NCBI GenBank assembly: GCA_029263125.1
Contig: JAJCYD010000017.1
Span: 1 to 64,000 of the forward strand
Direction of reading: 5' to 3'
Length of the DNA: 64,000 bases
Source of the DNA: Solirubrobacteraceae bacterium
Lineage (GTDB): Bacteria; Actinomycetota; Thermoleophilia; Solirubrobacterales; Solirubrobacteraceae
The position numbers were made by a program, and so were the translations under genes. Below are positions 8,825 to 46,880 of the stretch, one piece after another. The notes beneath the pieces are model-generated. The model did no database searches, had not been told where the DNA came from, and worked only from the letters and a program-made list of their open reading frames with translations. Numbering within the stretch: the first letter of the stretch is position 1; the number at the start of each line of letters is the position of its first letter.

Positions 8825-9071
8825 CTTCAGGCTACTCCTCCTCGCACGAAGCGTGGCACGTGAAAGGTCGCCGTCACCGAGTCGGCGCCGAGGCGCCCCG
8901 CACCCGCCGGCGTTCAGCGGTCCACCCGAGATCTGCAACGTCACCGTGCGACCACTGCCGCCGGCTGGCGGAGATTGCCATGCCCCGCCGTGTGTACGGT
9001 GCAGCCCCGACCCGATTACAGGGGAGCTGACCGCTTGATACGCATAGCGACCGCATGCAGGGCGTTCATCG

Positions 9072-9515
9072 TTGTGCCGGCGGCGTGCGGTGCCGGCGCC
9101 CGCACCATCACCACACACGTCACGCGCAACTGACGGGGCGATCGCCATAACTCGCGTCAGGCTCGACGAGCGCTTCGAGGCGCTGCAACGGCGCCGGCTT
9201 CCCGGCGACCTGACGCTGATCGTCGCGTCGAGCCGGCGCTCGCGGATGCTCGGGCTGGCGAAGCTCGATGCCCTCCCCCGTGCCCATGCCCTGCTGCTCG
9301 AGCCGTGCCGCTCGGTCCACACGGTGACGATGCGCTTCGCCCTGGACCTCATCTGGCTGGACCGCGACGGCGATCCGATCCGGCTCGACGAGGATGTCGC
9401 GCCGTGGCGCCAGCGCAGCTGCCTGCGCGCGCGTTCGGTGATCGAGGCCAACGCGGGCGACGGGCGGCGCTTCAGCGACGCACTCGCGCGGCGTCACGAC
9501 TCGAACGACGTCTAG
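9072..9515 (+). CDS. DUF192 family protein
   Basis: The C-terminal 110 residues show the DUF192 (UPF0127) pattern: RSRMLGLAKLDALP, then Leu-Leu-Leu-Glu-Pro-Cys, then VHTVTMRFALDLIWLDRDG. Members are small beta-rich proteins of unknown function found in all domains. No signal peptide is evident. The first 30 residues are atypical and the real start may be an alternative codon near 9130. Its 3' end overlaps by 4 bp the end of the convergent gene at 9512. Confidence 0.7.
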   Translation: MCRRRAVPAPAPSPHTSRATDGAIAITRVRLDERFEALQRRRLPGDLTLIVASSRRSRMLGLAKLDALPRAHALLLEPCRSVHTVTMRFALDLIWLDRDGDPIRLDEDVAPWRQRSCLRARSVIEANAGDGRRFSDALARRHDSNDV

Positions 9516-10501
9516 GACCCCGCGTTCTCGACGCCGAGCCTGGCTTCGACATGGCCGGCCAGCCGTCCGTTGACAAACGCCCGGGCCTCGTCGGGCAGCA
9601 GCTTCATCAGTGGCAGGAGATCATCGAGCAGATCGCCCTCGACGGCCGCATCGACCATCGAGGCGAGCAGCTCGGGCTCGTGCAGCGCCGGCAGGGTCGC
9701 GAACCGCCGGCGGCCGTCCTCGCTCATGTTGCGAGAGACGGGCAGGACGACGTTCCACAGACGGTCGCGCTGGGCACACGCCGCCAGGCCCTCGATCACC
9801 GCGTCGTCCTCCCCGGCAGCCATGTCCGCGAGCCACGCGGCCTGCTCGGCGGGCAAGCGCGTCAGCAAGTCCAGCGCCTGAGGCCAGAGGTCAGCCTCCG
9901 TGGCCGCCCGGATCGCGCCGCGCACGCGATCGTTTGAGAGCAGGTCGACGACATGGCCGAGCTGGTCCTTCTCCTCGACGAAGTAGGAGATTCGCAACAG
10001 CGACGCGTCGTCGAGGACGTCGAAGGATGCGCGCAGCGCGGCATCGGTCATGTGGCCGACGAAGCGGCCCATGACGATGTGCTCGTCGCGGCGCGTGAGC
10101 ACCGCGGCGACCCTGGCCACGAGGGCCGCCGGAAGGAGCAGGATGATCGCTCTGGCGCGCCGCGGATCGAGCTGCATCGCCAGGTCGGCGAGGAACGTCG
10201 GCGGCATGCGCTGCGCCAGCGCGACGGCGCGCGCGGGCTCCAGCAGGCCGGTCACGCGGGCGCACAGGAGCGCGCCGAACAGATGCTGTGCGATCCAGGC
10301 GGTCATGCCCGGCGGCGGAATCCTGCTTGCGAGCGCGACCCGTGCGAAGCGGTGATCGCCCTCGTAGAGCACCGCCGTCGCGCGCTCGCGCAGCTTGCGG
10401 ATCTCCGCGGGATCCATCTCCTCGAGGTAGTCCAGGCGCTCGCCCGACGTGCCCAGCAGGCGCGCGAGCTTCATGACCTCCGCGTGCCCCGCGAGGCTCA
10501 T
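9512..10501 (-). CDS. hypothetical alpha-helical repeat protein
   Basis: The 329-residue cytosolic protein is built almost entirely of helices with regularly spaced Leu-Ala pairs. Segments such as FLADLAMQLDPRRARAIILL and ALVARVAAVLTRRDEHIVM resemble the N-terminal (PF03448-like) superhelix of MgtE transporters, but no membrane or CBS part follows. ATG 10501 overlaps the stop of the preceding small gene (ATGA), so the two are coupled. I cannot assign a biochemical role; a scaffold or regulatory function is plausible from the fold alone. Confidence 0.6.
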   Translation of the reverse strand: MSLAGHAEVMKLARLLGTSGERLDYLEEMDPAEIRKLRERATAVLYEGDHRFARVALASRIPPPGMTAWIAQHLFGALLCARVTGLLEPARAVALAQRMPPTFLADLAMQLDPRRARAIILLLPAALVARVAAVLTRRDEHIVMGRFVGHMTDAALRASFDVLDDASLLRISYFVEEKDQLGHVVDLLSNDRVRGAIRAATEADLWPQALDLLTRLPAEQAAWLADMAAGEDDAVIEGLAACAQRDRLWNVVLPVSRNMSEDGRRRFATLPALHEPELLASMVDAAVEGDLLDDLLPLMKLLPDEARAFVNGRLAGHVEARLGVENAGS

Positions 10502-39744: not shown

Positions 39745-39809
39745 GGGTCCGAGCAGGAATAGGTGCACGATCCGGTGGCCAGAGACCGCAGGTATTCCTG
39801 CTCGGGCCC
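39745..39809. terminator. 17-bp stem-loop directly after the P450 stop codon
   Basis: GGGTCCGAGCAGGAATA pairs with TATTCCTGCTCGGGCCC (one G-U pair in RNA), enclosing a 31-nt loop. The stem begins one base after the minus-strand P450 stop (39812-39810), so it is the likely 3' end of the peroxidase/P450 transcript. No U-tract follows. Confidence 0.7.
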
Positions 39810-41075
39810 TCAGCCGTCGAAGCGCACGGTCAGCCCCGACGGGAACGGACCCTCGAACTTCAGGTCGCCGTCGTCGCCGCGAGCACGCGTGATCGGGCGG
39901 CCCTCCAGCAGCGCGGTCATCAGCGCCGGGAGCTGGTGGCGCACGATCTGCTGGCCATAGCACGTGTGTAGGCCATGACCGAAGAGCATGTAGTCACTCC
40001 ACGGCCGGTCGATGCGGAAGTCCTCGGGATCGGCGATCGCGCGCTCGTCGTGCATCGCCGACAGCGTGCCGGCGAAGATCGTCGAGCCGGCCTTGACGGT
40101 CGTCTCGCGGTCGGTGCCCGCGGCGATCACGGCGTCCTGCGGACACAGGCGCAGCAGCGCGAAGTTCTGCGGGCTGAAGCGCAGCGCCTCCCAGACGTAC
40201 TGCCCGACGAGCGCGCGATCGCCGTCGCGCGCGGCGGCCTGGGCGCCGCGAAGCTCGTCCTCGCGCTCGAGCAGGACGTTGACCGCCCGTGCCAGCGAGT
40301 TTGAGACCGTGGGAATCCAGCCGACGATGTTGCCCAGGATGTTGTGGCGGATCGCGATGTCGAAGAACTTCGGCTCGCCGTCGTCCTGCAAGCGCAGCAG
40401 CCGCGTTAGCACGTCGTCGGGGACGTCCTCCCCAGCCCCGATCGCGGCCTTGCGCACGTCGATGAGGCCATCGAGATGCGTGCGCCACAGCGCCGCGTCC
40501 TGCAGCGCGCGCTCGCGCGTCTCTGCGAGGTTGTTGACGTTGATGAACAGCTCCCAGAAGATGTCGCGCGCCCAGCGCGCCTGCGTCTGCGCGTCGGGCC
40601 CCGGTGTGCCGAAGTACGCGTCGATCGATCGAATCAGCGCGGGGTCGGCAAGCTCGGAGACGACGTCGATCGACTCGCCGGCCTCGGAGACAAGCTCGCG
40701 CGCGTAGCCGAGCATCGCGTCGCCGAGCGGCTGCATGTCCTCGCGACGCACGGCGCGGTCCATCGCGGCGTGGTCATGGTGATACAGCGGCGTGTCGTCG
40801 ACGCCGAGGATGAACGGGCCCGTGACGGCCTGCATCTTCGGCCCGTACAGACCAGCCGTGAAGCGCTGCGGATCGCCGAGGACCTCCTTGACGTCCTCGG
40901 CCAGCGCGACGACCGTCAGCGCCTTCGTCGAGATGATCGGCTTGTGGTCGCGCATGAACGCGAACAGCCGCGGCGCCGTCTTGTCGGCGACCTGGCCGAA
41001 GAGGTTGGAAACATCCTCGGCGAGCTTGTCGGCGCGGTCCTTGAAGCGCTCGCGGATCTCGTCGTCGAGGCCCAC
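39810..41075 (-). CDS. cytochrome P450 without the usual I-helix acid-alcohol pair
   Basis: The GTG-start protein has 421 residues. The heme-thiolate loop is FGHGLHTCYGQ (C372) and the ExxR motif is EALR (E296-R299). The I-helix (about 243-268) reads GNIVGWIPTVSNSLA and lacks the usual (Ala/Gly)-Gly-x-(Asp/Glu)-Thr pair that protonates the O2 intermediate. This feature is typical of P450s that rearrange hydroperoxides, such as CYP74 or the P450 half of fungal Ppo enzymes. GTG 41075 lies 5 bases after the stop of the DyP gene. It is the last gene of a coupled four-gene operon with DyP and two small proteins. Confidence 0.88.
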   Translation of the reverse strand: MGLDDEIRERFKDRADKLAEDVSNLFGQVADKTAPRLFAFMRDHKPIISTKALTVVALAEDVKEVLGDPQRFTAGLYGPKMQAVTGPFILGVDDTPLYHHDHAAMDRAVRREDMQPLGDAMLGYARELVSEAGESIDVVSELADPALIRSIDAYFGTPGPDAQTQARWARDIFWELFINVNNLAETRERALQDAALWRTHLDGLIDVRKAAIGAGEDVPDDVLTRLLRLQDDGEPKFFDIAIRHNILGNIVGWIPTVSNSLARAVNVLLEREDELRGAQAAARDGDRALVGQYVWEALRFSPQNFALLRLCPQDAVIAAGTDRETTVKAGSTIFAGTLSAMHDERAIADPEDFRIDRPWSDYMLFGHGLHTCYGQQIVRHQLPALMTALLEGRPITRARGDDGDLKFEGPFPSGLTVRFDG

Positions 41076-41080
41076 CGCGG

Positions 41081-42466
41081 CTATCCCGTGGTTCCATCGG
41101 CGATCGCCGCAAGCGCGCTGACGCCCGGAACAAACAGGTACTCGCCGCCGCGCGTCTTGACGACCGCCTCCATCGGAGCCAGGAAGAAGGGCGGCCGGCC
41201 CTGGATCGTCATCTTGCCCGTGCCCTCCGGGTCGCCGAGCAGGAAGTCCTTGTCGTGGCCGAGGCCGAAGATGTTGCCGTCGTTGAGCCATTGCATCTGC
41301 ACTGCCTCGAACTGGCGCGAGATGCTGGCCTGGAAGCTGACGAAGACCAGGCCGCGGTCGGCGCGGTCGTCGGGCTTGCCGTCTGGGAGCGGGTCGCCGT
41401 AGGGCATGCCGCGGCGGATCATGCGGTGGCGGAAGGTCAGCGCGCCCTGAAAGCCCAGCGCGTCGCGCGGGTTGGAGCGGCGGATGTGCGAGCCCAGCGG
41501 GCAGCGCATGCCGTCGCTGTCTGACGAGTAGCGAAAATCGTTGGCGCCGCGTGCGGTGGCGTCGAAGTCCGGATCAGGCTTGTCGGGGTGGGTGACCAGC
41601 GGCGTGCCGTCCGTCCAGCGGCCGACGACCTTCGCCGCGAGCTTGTGCTCGTCTCCGGCTTGGTAGAGCTCCGCCGCGTCGGCCATCACGCGCCGCCACA
41701 GCGCGACGTCCTGGTAGAGCTTGCGCCACACCATGTACGTGCCGCTCTTGCCCAGCGGATCGGCCGGCGCGTTGGGCAGCGTGCGCTTGGGGTCGTCGCG
41801 CGTGTCCTCGTCGGGATAGCCGAGCACGAACTCGCCGGGCGCGAGCGCTCGCCAGCGGCCGTCCTCCTCGGGCACCCCTCCCCCGGGCGCCTTGTCGTCG
41901 CTGGCGCCCTGGACCGCAGGCTGGGCGAAGCCGTCCGCATAGCCGAAGTGCTCGCGCGCGCCCGTCAGCAGTGCCGTGTCCTGCTGGAAGACGATCTCCA
42001 GGCCCCCCGCGTCGTCCATCGCGGCGCGCATGAGCCCGAGCGCCCGGCGATGATCCTCGGCCTCCTGGGCGTTGATCGTCAACAGCACGTGGGCCGAGCC
42101 GTCGCCGAGCCCTCGCTCCCACGCGCCGGGATCGCTGACGCCCGTGTCACCGAGACGCTCCGCGCGCGAGGACATGCCCTCGCGAAACTCCGCCGAGAAG
42201 GAGGCGACGACCTCGTCGGAGACCCCCAGCGCCTTCAGCCCCGCGGCCGTTACGGCGACGTTGAGCGTCGTCACCGGCTTGCCGTCCTTCCACGGCTCGG
42301 CCGTCGTGACGTGATCCAGCAGGCCGGAGAACCAGGCGCGGGCCTGCTCGGGCGGGCAGGTGATCTTCACGAAGGCGTAGGAGGTGTGGTCGTAGTCGTT
42401 GCCGTAGGCGCGCAGGATGTCGCCTTGCAGATCGCGCAGATCGATGTGGACGCGGGCGTCTGCCAT
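41081..42466 (-). CDS. DyP-type heme peroxidase
   Basis: The 461-residue protein has the family signature GYADG (175-179; D178 is the distal acid), proximal His H327 in GSHIRRSNPRDA and the following LTFRHRMIRRG with the distal Arg. It begins MADARVHIDLRDLQGDILR, a ferredoxin-like beta strand and helix. There is no Tat or Sec signal, so it is cytosolic. It overlaps the upstream gene by one base (TGATG) and is followed by the P450. DyP peroxidases oxidise bulky aromatics using peroxide; its partner P450 suggests it may generate or consume a lipid or aromatic hydroperoxide. Confidence 0.9.
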   Translation of the reverse strand: MADARVHIDLRDLQGDILRAYGNDYDHTSYAFVKITCPPEQARAWFSGLLDHVTTAEPWKDGKPVTTLNVAVTAAGLKALGVSDEVVASFSAEFREGMSSRAERLGDTGVSDPGAWERGLGDGSAHVLLTINAQEAEDHRRALGLMRAAMDDAGGLEIVFQQDTALLTGAREHFGYADGFAQPAVQGASDDKAPGGGVPEEDGRWRALAPGEFVLGYPDEDTRDDPKRTLPNAPADPLGKSGTYMVWRKLYQDVALWRRVMADAAELYQAGDEHKLAAKVVGRWTDGTPLVTHPDKPDPDFDATARGANDFRYSSDSDGMRCPLGSHIRRSNPRDALGFQGALTFRHRMIRRGMPYGDPLPDGKPDDRADRGLVFVSFQASISRQFEAVQMQWLNDGNIFGLGHDKDFLLGDPEGTGKMTIQGRPPFFLAPMEAVVKTRGGEYLFVPGVSALAAIADGTTG

Positions 42467-43005
42467 CAGCTCGGGAACTCCTTGACGAACGCCTCTTGAA
42501 GCTCCTCGGGCTCCATGCCCTGCGCGCGGGTGGCGAAGGCCATCAGGCGCTCGCGCTGGTCCAGCGAGGCCTTCACCTTGGCGACGGTGGCCTGACCGTA
42601 GGCCGCGTAGAAGAACCCACAGTCGATCTGGTTGTGCTTGAGGTAGGCCTTCAGCCCCTTGGCGTCTTGCGGACCGCCGATGCAGCGACCCCAGATCTCG
42701 GGGATCTCGCCGGCGAGCTGCGCGCCGAGATCGTCGAGATAGCTGTCCAGCTCGCCGTCGAAGTTGCTGGAGAAGCACAGCATCGGGATCGCGAGGTGCT
42801 CCTCCCTGCGCTGCTTGTAGTGCGGCTTGTGGTTGAAGTCCTCGACGATGACCAGGCGGGCCATGTGGGTGCGCTTGACGCGGCGCAACGGCCGCGTCGC
42901 TCCGAGGCCCTCGATGGTGGCGCGCAGGGCGTCCTGTTCGCCGGGCTTGATCGGCGTGATCGCGAGGAAGCCGTAGGCCTGTCCAGAGACGTTGGACGAG
43001 TTCAT
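42466..43005 (-). CDS. small protein of the DyP/P450 operon (paralogue B)
   Basis: The 179-residue cytosolic protein has a predicted ferredoxin-like start (AYGFLAITPIKPGEQDALRA), a basic region, the strand and helix MLCFSSNFDGELDSYLDDL and a helical C-terminus ending Glu-Phe-Pro-Ser. The (S/E)SNF(D/N)G motif and the later pattern GL-KAYLKHNQI...FFYAAYGQATVAKVKASL recur in the upstream gene, so the two are paralogues. The ATG overlaps the upstream stop (ATGA) and its stop overlaps the DyP start. I do not recognise the family; the fold suggests an alpha/beta barrel related to DyP. Confidence 0.8.
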   Translation of the reverse strand: MNSSNVSGQAYGFLAITPIKPGEQDALRATIEGLGATRPLRRVKRTHMARLVIVEDFNHKPHYKQRREEHLAIPMLCFSSNFDGELDSYLDDLGAQLAGEIPEIWGRCIGGPQDAKGLKAYLKHNQIDCGFFYAAYGQATVAKVKASLDQRERLMAFATRAQGMEPEELQEAFVKEFPS

Positions 43006-43622
43006 AGCGAGCGCTGCGCGTCGGTGAGCATCTTCTCGTAGGCCCTGGCGAAGGCGTCCGGTTGCATGCCCTTGGCGCTGCGCCGCAGCGGCGCGAGCTT
43101 GTCGTCGAGATCGAGCGCCGCCTTGACCATCGTGATCGTCGCCTCGGGATAGGCCGAGTAGTAGTGGCTGTTGGCGATTTCGTTCTCCTTGATGTACGCC
43201 TTGAACGGCCCGACCGGCAGCGCCTTGGGGAAGCCGTAGGAGCTGCCCCAGAACGCCGCCATCCCGCTGGTCAGGATGTGCGAGAACGCGTCGATGTACT
43301 CCTCCCAGCCGCCGTTGAAGTTGCTCTCGAAGTACATGTGCGGATAGCGCAGCCGCTGCTTGGGTTGTGGCGCGCCGTTGTAGGGGATCTTCGTGACCAG
43401 CGACCAGCGCGCGAAGTGGATGAACGACAGCTGAACGATCGTCGTGGTCAGCTTGGGCGTGCGCTTGGTGACGTTGAACAGGACCGGCAGGAACGCGCGT
43501 CCCCACCACTTGACGGTGCTGAACACGGTGATCGCGATCGCCTGACCGTCGATATTGCGCTCCGACGGGGTCCCGGTGGCAGTGATCGGCCCGGCGGATG
43601 GCGCAGTGCTCACGCCGGCCAA
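43002..43622 (-). CDS. small protein of the DyP/P450 operon (paralogue A)
   Basis: The 206-residue protein is the first gene of the operon. It has QLSFIHFARWSLVTKIP, then HMYFESNFNGGWEEYIDAF, then GPFKAYIKENEIANSHYYS and ATITMVKAALDL, each with a counterpart in the next gene. Conserved points between the two are the Ser-Asn-Phe-x-Gly motif, a Lys-Ala-Tyr-x-Lys helix and the Tyr/Ala-Tyr turn. No cofactor motif is apparent. The first about 20 residues look like a flexible leader, so the true start could be later. Function unknown; it may be a scaffold or a binding protein for the oxygenase partners. Confidence 0.78.
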   Translation of the reverse strand: MAGVSTAPSAGPITATGTPSERNIDGQAIAITVFSTVKWWGRAFLPVLFNVTKRTPKLTTTIVQLSFIHFARWSLVTKIPYNGAPQPKQRLRYPHMYFESNFNGGWEEYIDAFSHILTSGMAAFWGSSYGFPKALPVGPFKAYIKENEIANSHYYSAYPEATITMVKAALDLDDKLAPLRRSAKGMQPDAFARAYEKMLTDAQRSL

Positions 43623-43785: not shown

Positions 43786-44469
43786 TCAGCTCTCGTCGAG
43801 CTCGATGCGCATTGCGCGCGCGAGGGTGCGGCCGAGCACGTGATCGGTGTCGCCGACGCGCACGGTGATCGGGCCGTCGAACGGCTGTCGCGCCGAGACG
43901 ACGCAGCGGTCGCCGAGCGCGATGCCCTGCTCGGCGAGGAAGCGCAGCATCTGCGAGTCGGAGTCCGAGACGCGCACGAAGCAGCCGCCTCGGCCGATCG
44001 CGACGTTGCTCAGGGCCTCGGTGTCGCCCTCGTCGATGACGAGGTCATGGCTCGGGATCGGATCGCCGTGCGGATCGTGGGTCGGGTCGCCGAGCTTGGC
44101 GGCGATGCGGGCCTCGAGGTCCTCTGACAGGACGTGCTCCAGAGCCTCGGCCTCCTCGTGCACGCGATCCCACGGCACGTCGAGGTGCTCGGCGAGATAG
44201 AGCTCGAGCAGGCGGTGGTGGCGCATCATCTCCAGCGCCAGGCGCTCGCCCGCCGCCGTCAGGCGCACGCCGTGGTAGGGCTCGTGCAGTGCGAGGTCGC
44301 GCTCGGCGAGCTTCTTGACCATCGCCGAAGCCGAAGCCGGCGTGACGCCGCAGCGCTCGGCGAGCGCGTTCGTGCTGACCGGCTCGCCCTTGGCGCGCTG
44401 CTGCAGCGAGTAGATCGCCTTCGCGTAGTCCTCGATCGCACTGCTGCGACCCGCGCCCAGTGCCGCCAT
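43786..44469 (-). CDS. DtxR-family metal-dependent regulator (IdeR/MntR-like)
   Basis: The 227-residue protein has an N-terminal winged helix (about 10-75) with AIEDYAKAIYSLQQ, VTPASASAMVKKLAER and HHRLLELYLAEHLDVPWDRVHEEA. The last segment is the dimerisation region with the family's metal-site His and Glu. A C-terminal FeoA/SH3-like domain (from about 150) is present, as in IdeR. Its start overlaps the ZIP transporter stop (TGATG). It would repress metal-uptake or storage genes when Fe or Mn is bound. A shared operator-like motif stands before the MCO gene and mntH. Confidence 0.88.
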   Translation of the reverse strand: MAALGAGRSSAIEDYAKAIYSLQQRAKGEPVSTNALAERCGVTPASASAMVKKLAERDLALHEPYHGVRLTAAGERLALEMMRHHRLLELYLAEHLDVPWDRVHEEAEALEHVLSEDLEARIAAKLGDPTHDPHGDPIPSHDLVIDEGDTEALSNVAIGRGGCFVRVSDSDSQMLRFLAEQGIALGDRCVVSARQPFDGPITVRVGDTDHVLGRTLARAMRIELDES

Positions 44470-45695
44470 CACACGCTGACCAGTAGTCCGGTGGCGAACA
44501 TCAGCGCAAGTCCTACCAGGAGGCCGCCGACGGCGCGCGGATGCAACGTCCGGCCGTTGTCGTCGCGCAGCGTCGGGGCGAGCTGCACCATGACCTGGGC
44601 GATCGCTCCGGCACCCGCGCCGAACAGGAACGCCGCGATCGACGTGTTGAAGGCCGAGGCGCCGATCCACGTGCCGAGCACCGCCGGCCCGCCCGCGAGC
44701 AGCCCAAGCCCGGCCAGGCGCCCGAGCGTCGGCTTGCTGCGCGCGATCGGGGCGACGATCGCCAGGCCTTCGGTCGTGTTGTGCAGCGCGAAGCCGACGA
44801 CGAGGAAGGCGCCGAGCGCCAGCGCGCCGGTCGTGTAGGCGGTCCCGATCGCCAGCCCCTCCCCCAGGTTGTGCAAGCCGATGCCGATCGCGATCAGCGT
44901 GGCCAGCGACCCCGCGCTGGCTCCCGCCTCGGCGCCGGCCCGGCGGCGGTCGCGCAGCCAGGCGCTGATGCCGGTCAGCGCGAGGAACGCCACGGCCGCT
45001 CCGATGAACACGAGCGCCGCGCCGCCGAAGGCCTGTGAGCCCTCGCCGCTCTGCTCGAGGCCCTCGAGCGTCGCATCGATCGCCAGGAACCCCAGCAGCC
45101 CGACGGTGAGCGCCATGACGAAGCGCAGCCACGCGGGCGGAATGCGGCGAATCCATGGCAGCCACAACATGCCCAGCGCGATCGGGATGACGCCGACGTA
45201 GATCCCCAGCAGCGCCATCAGGCCGAAGAAGCCGGCGTCGGCCACGGGCGTCGGTACGGCGATGTCGATCGCGTGATCGATCGTGCCGCCCGTGGAGGTC
45301 ACGAGCGCCACCTCGTAGGCCTGTCCCTCGATCCACGGCTCCGCGATCGCGACCGTCGCCGTATCCAGCCGCCCGATCGGCTTCTCGGCGCCGCTGAAGG
45401 GCGAGTAGGCGTCGTTGACGATCACCTGCGCGATCGAGACGGCGTCGGGCCCGTCGTTTCGCACCGTCAGCTCGATCGTGCCCGGAACGAGCTTCGTGCG
45501 CTCGATCGACAGCACTTCGGCCGGAGGGCCCGTGCGCTCGCCCAGTCCGGGCGCGCCGAGCGCGGTGAACGCGCCGATCGCGATCGCGATCAGCAGCAGC
45601 GGGACGACACCCAGCACCCAGCCGGGAATGCCGCGCGTGACCGTGCTCTCGCCGCCGGGATCGAGATCGTCTGCGGTCGCGCCGCCGGCTTCCAC
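44469..45695 (-). CDS. ZIP-family metal transporter with an extracytoplasmic N-terminal domain
   Basis: The GTG-start protein has 408 residues. After a short N-terminal tail and helix 1 (about 23-45), a beta-rich domain of about 100 residues is exposed outside (EVLSIERTKLVPGTIELTV ...). The C-terminal ZIP fold has the paired metal-binding helices GLHNLGEGLAIG and GFALHNTTEGLAIV. It would import divalent metal (Zn, Fe or Mn). GTG 45695 overlaps the multicopper oxidase stop (TAGTG). The extra external domain is unusual for ZIP proteins and may bind the oxidase or metal. Confidence 0.82.
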   Translation of the reverse strand: MEAGGATADDLDPGGESTVTRGIPGWVLGVVPLLLIAIAIGAFTALGAPGLGERTGPPAEVLSIERTKLVPGTIELTVRNDGPDAVSIAQVIVNDAYSPFSGAEKPIGRLDTATVAIAEPWIEGQAYEVALVTSTGGTIDHAIDIAVPTPVADAGFFGLMALLGIYVGVIPIALGMLWLPWIRRIPPAWLRFVMALTVGLLGFLAIDATLEGLEQSGEGSQAFGGAALVFIGAAVAFLALTGISAWLRDRRRAGAEAGASAGSLATLIAIGIGLHNLGEGLAIGTAYTTGALALGAFLVVGFALHNTTEGLAIVAPIARSKPTLGRLAGLGLLAGGPAVLGTWIGASAFNTSIAAFLFGAGAGAIAQVMVQLAPTLRDDNGRTLHPRAVGGLLVGLALMFATGLLVSV

Positions 45696-46735
45696 TACTC
45701 GACGACCTCGAAGAAGCCCATCCAGCCGAGCTCGGTGAACTCCGACTGGTGGGCGTGGAACATGTACTTGCCTGTATGGGGCATGCGCATCTCGACGATC
45801 CCGCGCTGGCCCTGGCAGAGCATGACCGTGTCGGTCAGCTCGCTGGGGGTCTTCGACGTTCCGGTGGGGAAGTACTCGAAGAGGTTGCCGTGCAGGTGGA
45901 ACGAGTTGATCGGGTCGTACTCGAGGATGTTGACGAGATAGATCCGGACGAGCTCGTCGCGCGCGATGCGGATCGGGCGCTCGGCGTACGCGAAACCGAT
46001 CGTGTTGGCGGCGTAGAACTCGTTGGCGCCGTCGAAGTTCGTGTCGAAGCCGTTCATGACCATCACCATCTCGTCGGCCTTCTCCCGCGGCCACTTGGGG
46101 TCGACGATGAAGGTCCCGTACATCCCCTTGGCGATGTGCTCGGCGAGCGGGCGAACATGGCAGTGGTAGAGATGCAGCCCCGCCGGCAGCGCGTCGAACT
46201 CGTAGACGAAGCGCCCGCCCGGTTCGATCGCGCCGCGACCCACCCCCGGCATCCCGTCCATCGAGGCCGGATGGATCCCGTGGAAGTGGATCGTGTGCGG
46301 GTGGATGCGCGAGCCGTTGACGAACGTGATGCGCAGCCGGTCGCCCTCCGTGCAGCGCAGGGTCGGGCCGGGGATCCGCCCGTTGTAGGACCACCCCTCG
46401 TAGGTCACGCCGGGAGCCAGCTCGATCTCCTGCTCGGCGGCCGCGAGCGTCCATTCGCGCAGCGTGCGCCCGTCGGGCAGCGTGCTCGTCTTGCCGTAGT
46501 CGAAGTCGCGCAGGATCTCGTGCGGATTGAAGCCGTTGGCCTCGTGGTCGACGGTCGCGCCACGGAACCCTGCATGCGAGCCGCCGTGCGCGGTCGCGGC
46601 AACGCCCGCGTTCCCGCCGTGCTCGGCTGCGGCGGCCGTGGCGTGGGAATGCGGGATCGTGGCATGCAGGGCGGTCGCCCCAAGGCCGAGGACGGGGACG
46701 GTGCCGAGCAGCTTGCGTCGAGTCAATGGCGCCAC
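45695..46735 (-). CDS. multicopper oxidase (two-domain, nitrite-reductase-like), Tat-exported
   Basis: From GTG 46735 the protein has 346 residues. The N-terminus LTRRKLLGTVPVLGLGATA is a twin-arginine signal, so the folded enzyme is exported with copper. Copper ligands: HFHGIHP, YHCHVRPLAEHI, HLHGNLFEY and MFHAHQSEFTELGWMG. The order and length fit a two-domain laccase- or NirK-like oxidase. Together with ZIP it resembles a ferroxidase/permease pair: oxidise then import Fe or Mn. It is the first gene of the operon MCO-ZIP-DtxR, with a candidate metal box just before the start. Confidence 0.85.
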   Translation of the reverse strand: MAPLTRRKLLGTVPVLGLGATALHATIPHSHATAAAAEHGGNAGVAATAHGGSHAGFRGATVDHEANGFNPHEILRDFDYGKTSTLPDGRTLREWTLAAAEQEIELAPGVTYEGWSYNGRIPGPTLRCTEGDRLRITFVNGSRIHPHTIHFHGIHPASMDGMPGVGRGAIEPGGRFVYEFDALPAGLHLYHCHVRPLAEHIAKGMYGTFIVDPKWPREKADEMVMVMNGFDTNFDGANEFYAANTIGFAYAERPIRIARDELVRIYLVNILEYDPINSFHLHGNLFEYFPTGTSKTPSELTDTVMLCQGQRGIVEMRMPHTGKYMFHAHQSEFTELGWMGFFEVVE

Positions 46736-46743
46736 GAGATGGA

Positions 46744-46761
46744 TTATGGCATGACTAAACC
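46744..46761. promoter_or_regulatory. candidate DtxR/MntR box before the multicopper oxidase
   Basis: Minus-strand GGTTTAGTCATGCCATAA lies 8 bp upstream of the MCO start. It matches the element before mntH (48205-48222) at 13 of 18 positions and contains the same CATG core and GGTT edge. It lies in an AT-rich pocket. Confidence 0.55.
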
Positions 46762-46880
46762 CCTGGCGCGCGATCTCGGACGCCGAGCCTCGCGCAGCGG
46801 CGACGCGTTCGTGCGCTGAGCCCACTCGACGCTGACGCGACGGCGGCCGGCATGAGCCGCCGCCCGTCGCGCTGCGGCCG

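What the first reader, a model, noticed from the sequence alone, without database searches (positions are those of the whole stretch)
39745..43622. Four-gene DyP peroxidase / P450 operon with two unknown paralogous proteins
The sequence shows four genes coupled by ATGA, TGATG or 5-bp gaps, ending in a 17-bp stem-loop. Two small proteins share a Ser-Asn-Phe-x-Gly motif and a Lys-Ala-Tyr-x-Lys helix with each other. The P450 keeps Cys372 and ExxR but its I-helix (about 243-268) has no acid-Thr pair. Family knowledge: P450s without that pair often rearrange or cleave hydroperoxides (CYP74, the P450 half of fungal Ppo). Inference: this could be a bacterial split peroxidase-P450 pathway for lipid or aromatic hydroperoxides, with the two small proteins as carrier or scaffold.
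Basis: partly seen in the sequence, partly recalled or inferred. Interest (0 to 1): 0.85.

Follow-up and report, generated by a model that had tools for sequence, protein, structure and literature searches.

The report
Bacterial P450–peroxidase module with novel partners
A four-gene set of two undescribed small proteins, a DyP-type peroxidase and an unusual cytochrome P450 recurs across several bacterial phyla, is fused into one giant protein in some, and keeps company with lipid-oxidising enzymes, so it is probably an unstudied bacterial counterpart of the peroxidase–P450 partnerships that make or process lipid hydroperoxides in fungi, plants and animals.

Summary
The four genes are real and tightly coupled. 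The two small proteins (here SmA, SmB) are paralogues and match no Pfam or NCBIfam family; SmB is predicted with high confidence as a dimeric alpha-beta-barrel (Dabb) fold. SmA was searched alone, yet DyP follows in all 43 loci not cut by a contig end, from Actinomycetota, Acidobacteriota, Gemmatimonadota and Pseudomonadota; the P450 follows in 22. In six sampled Pseudomonadota genomes and on three named plasmids the parts are one chain: P450–Sm–membrane hairpin–Sm–DyP (1,408–1,620 aa). The P450 has lost the I-helix acid (Pro replaces it) but kept the Thr; sister P450s without Sm–DyP keep Glu-Thr. Lipid genes lie nearby in a minority of loci: lipoxygenase, alpha-dioxygenase-type haem peroxidase, patatin, FadL, phospholipase. 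A COX-like protein adjoins two sister P450s. Best reading: a redox-partner-free haem module for fatty-acid hydroperoxides, with SmA/SmB as docking or substrate-handling subunits. The partnership is well supported; the chemistry is inferred. I found no description in the held literature.

The parts
43002..43613 (-). SmA: 203-aa protein of undescribed family, Dabb-like fold predicted (pLDDT 84.5), motif FIHFARW ... YFESNFNGGWEEYIDAF
   Evidence: alternative TTG start at 43622
42466..43005 (-). SmB: 179-aa paralogue of SmA, Dabb-like fold predicted (pLDDT 92.5), motif THMAR ... FSSNFDG; Arg50, Asp83, Cys108 invariant in 35 homologues
41081..42466 (-). DyP-type peroxidase, 461 aa; GxxDG (GYADG, 175-179), proximal His327 (GSHIRR) and Arg (RQFE, 384) present
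   Evidence: closest solved structures 8re3/8re2, E 1e-77
39810..41075 (-). Cytochrome P450, 421 aa from GTG; Cys372, ExxR (E296), I-helix GWIPT (252-256): acid replaced by Pro255, Thr256 kept
39745..39809 (-). Stem-loop just 3' of the P450 gene (16 of 17 bp paired, structured loop, no U-run)

Best explanation
The operon encodes a multi-haem complex that processes lipid (most likely fatty-acid) hydroperoxides without external electrons. SmA and SmB, a pair of Dabb-fold subunits, hold the DyP peroxidase and the P450 together and present a membrane-derived hydroperoxide to them. The P450 lacks the I-helix acid used for O2 activation. It uses the O-O bond of the hydroperoxide directly, by isomerisation, cleavage or intramolecular hydroxylation, as the P450 partners of fungal linoleate dioxygenases, plant CYP74 and prostacyclin synthase do. 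The DyP either reduces surplus hydroperoxide or supplies a radical or hydroperoxide to the same chain. Shown here: gene order, conservation, paralogy, natural fusions, intact haem-ligand motifs, acid-to-Pro change tracking the Sm-DyP context, lipid-enzyme neighbours in a minority of loci. Inferred: physical complex in this organism, substrate class, role of SmA/SmB, lack of a redox partner, and reaction type.
For: Loci were found through SmA alone, yet DyP is next to it in all 43 not cut by a contig end, and in all 20 divergent Pseudomonadota/Acidobacteriota loci read in full, fused or adjacent. Single-chain P450-Sm-TM hairpin-Sm-DyP: L145-L148, L154, L155, and plasmids of Novosphingobium aromaticivorans (WP_011907039), Pararhizobium qamdonense (WP_276121424) and Sulfitobacter pontiacus (WP_260005665); DyP-P450 fusion in L158. 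I-helix: Pro at the acid position in 35 of the 44 P450s that cover it, all 35 in Sm-DyP loci or fusions; the 5 relatives found without Sm-DyP have Glu-Thr and form one clade, 100/99. Lipid link: SmA-SmB-DyP-patatin-P450-FadL order in Ghiorsea and a Hyphomicrobiales MAG; Tle1-type phospholipase at L163; lipoxygenase plus alpha-dioxygenase-like gene beside SmA-SmB-DyP in Tabrizicola; alpha-dioxygenase relative (E 1e-119 to 4kvj) with GMC oxidoreductase and patatin beside a tandem-Sm protein in Solirubrobacter soli; haem peroxidase plus GMC about 1 kb upstream of SmA in a genome of the window's own genus; COX-like haem peroxidase beside sister P450s in Rhizobium etli and Sinorhizobium medicae (E 4.6e-53 to COX-2 for the latter). 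No gene beyond SmA/SmB/DyP/P450 recurs across unrelated loci, so no conserved redox partner is seen.
Against: About half of the core loci have no P450, so the P450 is an accessory to SmA-SmB-DyP. The window's own genome shows no lipoxygenase or animal-haem-peroxidase gene. Hydroperoxide-forming neighbours are a minority: 4 haem peroxidases and 2 lipoxygenases in 73 loci; across 398 Pseudomonadota genomes lipoxygenase is rare and was found in only 1 of 26 Sm-positive genomes, on another contig. The P450 Thr is kept, and loss of the acid alone does not prove a peroxide-driven enzyme. The sister P450s beside COX-like proteins keep Glu-Thr, so the acid loss is not needed for that partnership. Nothing was measured.
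Confidence: 0.6

Rival explanations
1. Lipid-hydroperoxide defence rather than synthesis: the module detoxifies or repairs peroxidised membrane lipids, DyP reducing hydroperoxides and P450 disposing of the rest, with no dedicated upstream dioxygenase.
For: The window's genome has no detectable PF03098 or PF00305 gene; most loci have no dioxygenase neighbour; Granulicella has Fur and KatG genes within about 6 kb downstream.
Against: Dedicated lipoxygenase, alpha-dioxygenase and COX-like genes sit next to some family members, which fits a made-to-order hydroperoxide. Stress-gene neighbours are not a recurring theme.
Confidence: 0.25
2. Ordinary pathway: the P450 is an O2-dependent monooxygenase served by unlinked ferredoxin/reductase, and the DyP scavenges H2O2 from uncoupled turnover.
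For: Thr of the pair is kept; overall sequence is nearest to ordinary bacterial P450s at low similarity.
Against: Acid replaced by Pro in 35 of 44; single-chain P450-Sm-Sm-DyP fusions without a reductase domain; no recurring redox-partner gene.
Confidence: 0.12
3. SmA and SmB are enzymes or haem-handling proteins (Dabb enzymes include polyketide cyclases, cofactor-free monooxygenases and IsdG-type haem oxygenases) acting on the product or on haem, not scaffolds. This can be true together with the best explanation.
For: The predicted fold is Dabb; polyketide enzymes, ABM monooxygenases and IsdG/MhuD appear among the nearest folds; a near-invariant Arg with a nearby His on strand 2, and an invariant Cys108 in SmB.
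Against: The His of SmA is Lys in several Solirubrobacter sequences, which argues against an essential catalytic or haem-ligand His there. Fold resemblance is at Z 8-9 only. The Sm domains bracket a membrane hairpin and link P450 to DyP in fusions, which suits anchoring.
Confidence: 0.3

Closest known systems
Fungal dioxygenase-CYP fusions (Ppo / linoleate diol synthases, allene oxide and epoxy alcohol synthases; PMC13049297)
   Same: A haem peroxidase-type partner coupled to a P450 of atypical I-helix in one chain; no reductase needed.
   Different: The fungal partner is of the COX/animal-haem-peroxidase superfamily and N-terminal; here it is a DyP, C-terminal in most fusions, with two Sm domains and a membrane hairpin between. 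Fungal CYPs carry Asn, Thr or a nonpolar residue near the iron; here the acid position is Pro, followed by Thr.
COX with prostacyclin/thromboxane synthase
   Same: Separate proteins: a peroxide-forming haem enzyme followed by a self-sufficient P450.
   Different: Unrelated peroxidase fold; no known product; only the sister P450s of Rhizobium etli and Sinorhizobium medicae sit beside a COX-like protein.
CYP152 bacterial fatty-acid peroxygenases
   Same: Bacterial P450 with a broken acid-alcohol pair.
   Different: CYP152 has Arg-Pro (own knowledge), here Pro-Thr; CYP152 has no SmA/SmB/DyP partners. No direct sequence comparison was run.
DyP-type peroxidases (closest solved 8re2/8re3)
   Same: Full-length similarity (E 1e-77) and catalytic motifs.
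   Different: Partnership with SmA/SmB and a P450 was not described in the papers found.
Coral catalase-related AOS-lipoxygenase fusions (PMC5617202)
   Same: Haem enzyme that rearranges a fatty-acid hydroperoxide, fused to its source enzyme. In Rhodococcus koreensis the gene after Sm-DyP is annotated 'catalase family protein'.
   Different: No lipoxygenase fusion seen here; that catalase-family protein gave no Pfam or PDB match, so its identity rests on annotation.
Dabb-fold families (ABM monooxygenases, NIPSNAP, EthD, polyketide cyclases, IsdG)
   Same: Predicted strand-helix topology.
   Different: No sequence match to any Pfam family; extra C-terminal helices; paralogous pair tied to DyP.

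Membership tests
DyP-type peroxidase | Curated family match and full-length similarity to solved DyPs | tested here: met
   TIGR01413 E 7e-34 above cut-off; PF21105 and PF20628 above cut-off; 8re3 E 1e-77
DyP-type peroxidase | GxxDG motif with distal Asp, proximal His in GxHIR | tested here: met
   GYADG at 175, His327 in GSHIRR
DyP-type peroxidase | Peroxidase activity | not testable with these tools
   needs enzyme assay
Cytochrome P450 | PF00067 match, Cys ligand, ExxR | tested here: met
   E 2e-9 over cut-off, Cys372, E296
Canonical O2-dependent P450 | I-helix acid-alcohol pair (D/E)-T | tested here: not met
   Pro at acid position, Thr kept; 35 of 44 have Pro, the 5 found without Sm-DyP have Glu
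CYP74/Ppo/PGIS-type hydroperoxide P450 | Turnover of hydroperoxide without redox partner | not testable with these tools
   needs assay; genomic context only
CYP74/Ppo/PGIS-type hydroperoxide P450 | Sequence clade of those families | not tested
   reference sequences not compared; best PDB relatives are ordinary bacterial P450s at low similarity
CYP152 peroxygenase | Arg-Pro at the acid-alcohol positions | tested here: not met
   window has Pro-Thr; Arg-Pro of CYP152 is own knowledge
Fungal Ppo (DOX-CYP) | Animal-haem-peroxidase (PF03098) domain fused to CYP | tested here: not met
   the peroxidase part is DyP, not PF03098; the works-like claim is unaffected
Dabb superfamily (fold) | ferredoxin-like fold of Dabb type | tested here: met
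   SmB model pLDDT 92.5; nearly all top VIA rows are Dabb, best Z 8.8 rmsd 2.7 over 99 residues, and Foldseek prob up to 0.99 but E no better than 0.017. Fold level only
Any described Pfam or NCBIfam family for SmA/SmB | Match above curated cut-off | tested here: not met
   none for P0003, P0004 or 41 SmA homologues in Pfam; none for P0003, P0004 in NCBIfam

The most novel reading that the evidence does not exclude
A separate class of lipid-oxygenating haem system, not derived from the COX/Ppo line: a DyP-scaffold enzyme acts as hydroperoxide-making dioxygenase or hydroperoxide-handling peroxidase in a fixed, membrane-tethered complex with a P450 through two dedicated Dabb subunits, in several phyla and as one 1,400-1,600-residue chain in Pseudomonadota.
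Probability: 0.3. Interest if true: 0.92.

Novelty: new variant of a known kind. Interest (0 to 1): 0.82.

Why it matters
The physiological substrates of bacterial DyPs are a long-standing open question (own knowledge). Here a conserved DyP subgroup comes with fixed partners and lipid-related neighbours, which turns the question into a direct test on fatty-acid hydroperoxides. It would add a bacterial peroxidase-P450 route to oxylipin-like products, built on a different peroxidase fold from the fungal and animal ones, and would give a role to a two-protein family now annotated only as 'hypothetical protein'. The acid-to-Pro change that tracks the partnership is a natural experiment in P450 mechanism.

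Tried and rejected
The first genome-contig scan with SmB alone found nothing; the SmA alignment succeeded. Profile searches of SmA/SmB against PDB sequences gave nothing significant. My first reading of the I-helix put the Thr one column off; the multi-family alignment showed that Thr is kept and only the acid is lost. A ferredoxin-motif scan near the P450s gave only hits that look like chance reading frames, so it neither finds nor excludes a redox partner. Transmembrane scan: window SmA, SmB, DyP and P450 have no TM segment (highest value 1.28); only fused, tandem and long SmB forms have one or two such segments, so membrane attachment of the window's version is not shown. Co-occurrence of lipoxygenase with Sm across 398 Pseudomonadota genomes was too sparse to support a link: 1 of 26 against 2 of 372. 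Literature searches for DyP plus P450 operons or fusions, and for DyP with lipid hydroperoxide, found no relevant paper; subscription papers are largely not held. A long review of bacterial and fungal octadecanoids does not mention DyP in the part held. The SmB structure comparison barely tests residues 139-179, and the SmA one residues after 159.
Full report
Observation. Four genes lie on the minus strand at 43613-39810: SmA (203 aa), SmB (179 aa), DyP (461 aa) and P450 (421 aa). They are coupled by ATGA, TGATG and a 5-bp gap and followed by a strong stem-loop without a U-run. SmA and SmB are paralogues, 30% identical, E 4e-24. DyP passes the DyP superfamily model and is closest to PDB 8re3 (E 1e-77). 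The P450 has Cys372 and the ExxR motif.

Small-protein family. SmA and SmB match no Pfam or NCBIfam model and no PDB sequence by profile. In Granulicella tundricola both are annotated 'hypothetical protein'. AlphaFold gave a confident model for SmB (pLDDT 92.5, pTM 0.81) and a fair one for SmA (84.5). Nearest solved folds are dimeric alpha-beta-barrel proteins: SmB to 9ltx (Z 8.8, rmsd 2.7, 99 aligned) and the ABM-like 3gz7 (Z 8.2, rmsd 2.9, 97 aligned); SmA to 7byu (Z 8.2, rmsd 3.2, 102 aligned). These Z values are moderate and Foldseek E-values are weak (0.017 at best). The fold claim therefore rests on model confidence and on nearly all top rows being of one superfamily.

Conservation. A scan of species genomes with SmA returned 46 loci from Solirubrobacterales, Frankiaceae, Acidobacteriota, Gemmatimonadota and Pseudomonadota, the last including the methanotrophs Methylosinus and Methylocystis, Tabrizicola and Ghiorsea. 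The order SmA-SmB-DyP holds. DyP is found in 43; the matches in the other three lie at contig edges. SmB is only a fragment in L071. The P450 follows in 22; in three of these a patatin gene lies between. No other gene recurs across unrelated loci. The core unit is therefore SmA-SmB-DyP, with the P450 as a frequent fourth member. Frequency is low: 3 of 296 sampled genomes of the window's phylum, 11 of 297 Acidobacteriota, 26 of 398 Pseudomonadota.

Natural fusions. In divergent relatives the parts are joined. L145-L148, L154 and L155 encode single chains of 1,408-1,535 aa with the order P450, Sm, hydrophobic segment(s), Sm, DyP. Plasmids in the annotated collection show the same in Novosphingobium aromaticivorans pNL2, Pararhizobium qamdonense and Sulfitobacter pontiacus. 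The first Sm domain is weakly scored or below threshold in some. L094 has Sm-hairpin-Sm-DyP (998 aa) with a P450 gene directly upstream, and L158 has a DyP-P450 fusion after a tandem-Sm gene. All 20 divergent loci read in full have DyP fused or adjacent. Catalytic motifs are intact where checked. Fusion of the same parts is strong evidence that they work together.

The P450. Aligned with its relatives, the window's GWIPT has Pro where canonical P450s have Asp/Glu, while the following Thr is kept. Pro occupies that position in 35 of 44, all from Sm-DyP loci or fusions. Five relatives without Sm-DyP (two Methylobacterium, Bradyrhizobium, Rhizobium etli, Sinorhizobium medicae) have Glu-Thr and form one supported clade (100/99). 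The remaining four (L066, L157, L094 and an unrelated P450 at L091) have Ala or Asp. Two of the Pro set (L151, Skermanella) have Gln in place of Thr. The acid-alcohol pair controls proton delivery in O2 activation (PMC9112060). Losing the acid fits an enzyme fed with a peroxide O-O bond but does not prove it. Fungal CYP partners, PGIS and thromboxane synthase show that O-O cleavage is possible with Asn, Thr or nonpolar residues at the distal site (PMC13049297).

Lipid link. In Ghiorsea (L048, L052) and a Hyphomicrobiales MAG (L054) the gene order is SmA-SmB-DyP-patatin-P450-FadL (Pfam E 2e-22 and 4e-79 for L048). L163 has a Tle1-type phospholipase next to P450-SmA-SmB-DyP, and L041 a phospholipase-D-like gene 5' of SmA. 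Tabrizicola (L065) has, immediately beside SmA on the other strand, a 1,009-aa haem peroxidase related to alpha-dioxygenase (E 3e-62 to 4kvj) and then a lipoxygenase. Solirubrobacter soli has an alpha-dioxygenase relative (E 1e-119 to 4kvj) with a GMC oxidoreductase and patatin near a tandem-Sm protein, with no DyP in the fetched 16 kb, and a lipoxygenase about 6 kb from another Sm-DyP pair. A genome of the window's own genus (L039/G002) has GMC plus an animal-haem-peroxidase-family gene about 1 kb 5' of SmA-SmB-DyP. The sister P450s of R. etli and S. medicae adjoin an animal-haem-peroxidase-family protein, COX-like in S. medicae (E 4.6e-53 to COX-2). In 73 loci (1.03 Mb) I count 4 such haem peroxidases and 2 lipoxygenases. 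Only 3 lipoxygenase genes were found in 398 Pseudomonadota genomes, so two in 1 Mb is far above background; the loci are not fully independent and come partly from another phylum, so this is a rough comparison. Across the 398 genomes, haem peroxidases are enriched in Sm-positive ones (8 of 26 against 38 of 372, Fisher p 0.005), though mostly not adjacent. Lipoxygenase is too rare there to show a link.

Limits. The window's own genome shows neither family, so the hydroperoxide source there is unknown; environmental or non-enzymatic lipid peroxidation remains possible. The window's SmA and SmB have no transmembrane segment, so membrane attachment is inferred from relatives only. About half the core loci have no P450. 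Substrate, product, complex formation and self-sufficiency are untested.

Mechanism proposed. Step 1: a fatty-acid hydroperoxide is formed by a dioxygenase or lipoxygenase where present, or comes from elsewhere (inferred). Step 2: SmA/SmB dock the haem enzymes and pass the substrate (inferred from fusions and fold). Step 3: the P450 consumes the O-O bond without a reductase (inferred from the acid loss and from the absence of a recurring redox-partner gene or reductase domain). Step 4: DyP reduces excess hydroperoxide or generates a radical for oxygenation (inferred; the alternatives are open).

Verdict. Real, conserved, and not described in the literature I could search. It works like a peroxidase-P450 oxylipin cascade (inference) but is not a member of the fungal Ppo family, because the peroxidase is a DyP rather than a PF03098 protein.

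Noticed in passing
window 43786-44484 (-): DtxR/MntR-like regulator gene (named by eye) beside the operon, conserved at 75-83% identity beside it in the close relatives L029 and L033; possible metal-dependent control not tested.
   Followed up: partly
window 44469-46825 (-): ORFs resembling a ZIP-type metal transporter and a multicopper oxidase upstream of the regulator; assignment by eye only.
   Followed up: no
L045:6413-7939, L064:6556-7992, L067:6543-7994, L069:6540-7991: Solirubrobacter loci carry a conserved ~480-aa gene directly 5' of SmA; the copy tested has no Pfam match.
   Followed up: partly
L149:5570-6013 and 8833-10029; L159, L160, L150, L156, L091: A ~147-aa and a ~400-aa protein without Pfam match recur with GMC oxidoreductase, tandem-Sm and DyP genes, suggesting a second, larger pathway version.
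   Followed up: partly
L093:8673-11701; L170:8701-13257: A variant with one Sm gene, DyP and a DUF4331 protein (Solirubrobacter pratensis; Sinorhizobium chiapasense plasmid).
   Followed up: partly
L172:8818-12100: Rhodococcus koreensis plasmid: Sm, peroxidase, then a 385-aa 'catalase family protein' with no Pfam or PDB match in the place of the P450.
   Followed up: partly
L174:1-7164: Bradyrhizobium barranii plasmid: sister P450 with Glu-Thr beside a RoxA-like cytochrome c, with an oleate hydratase about 5 kb upstream.
   Followed up: partly
L145:2958-4733; L166:7140-8903; L154:3158-4909; L165:7099-8787: Fusion genes are preceded by adenylate/guanylate-cyclase or SARP/TPR regulator genes, hinting at dedicated regulation.
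   Followed up: partly
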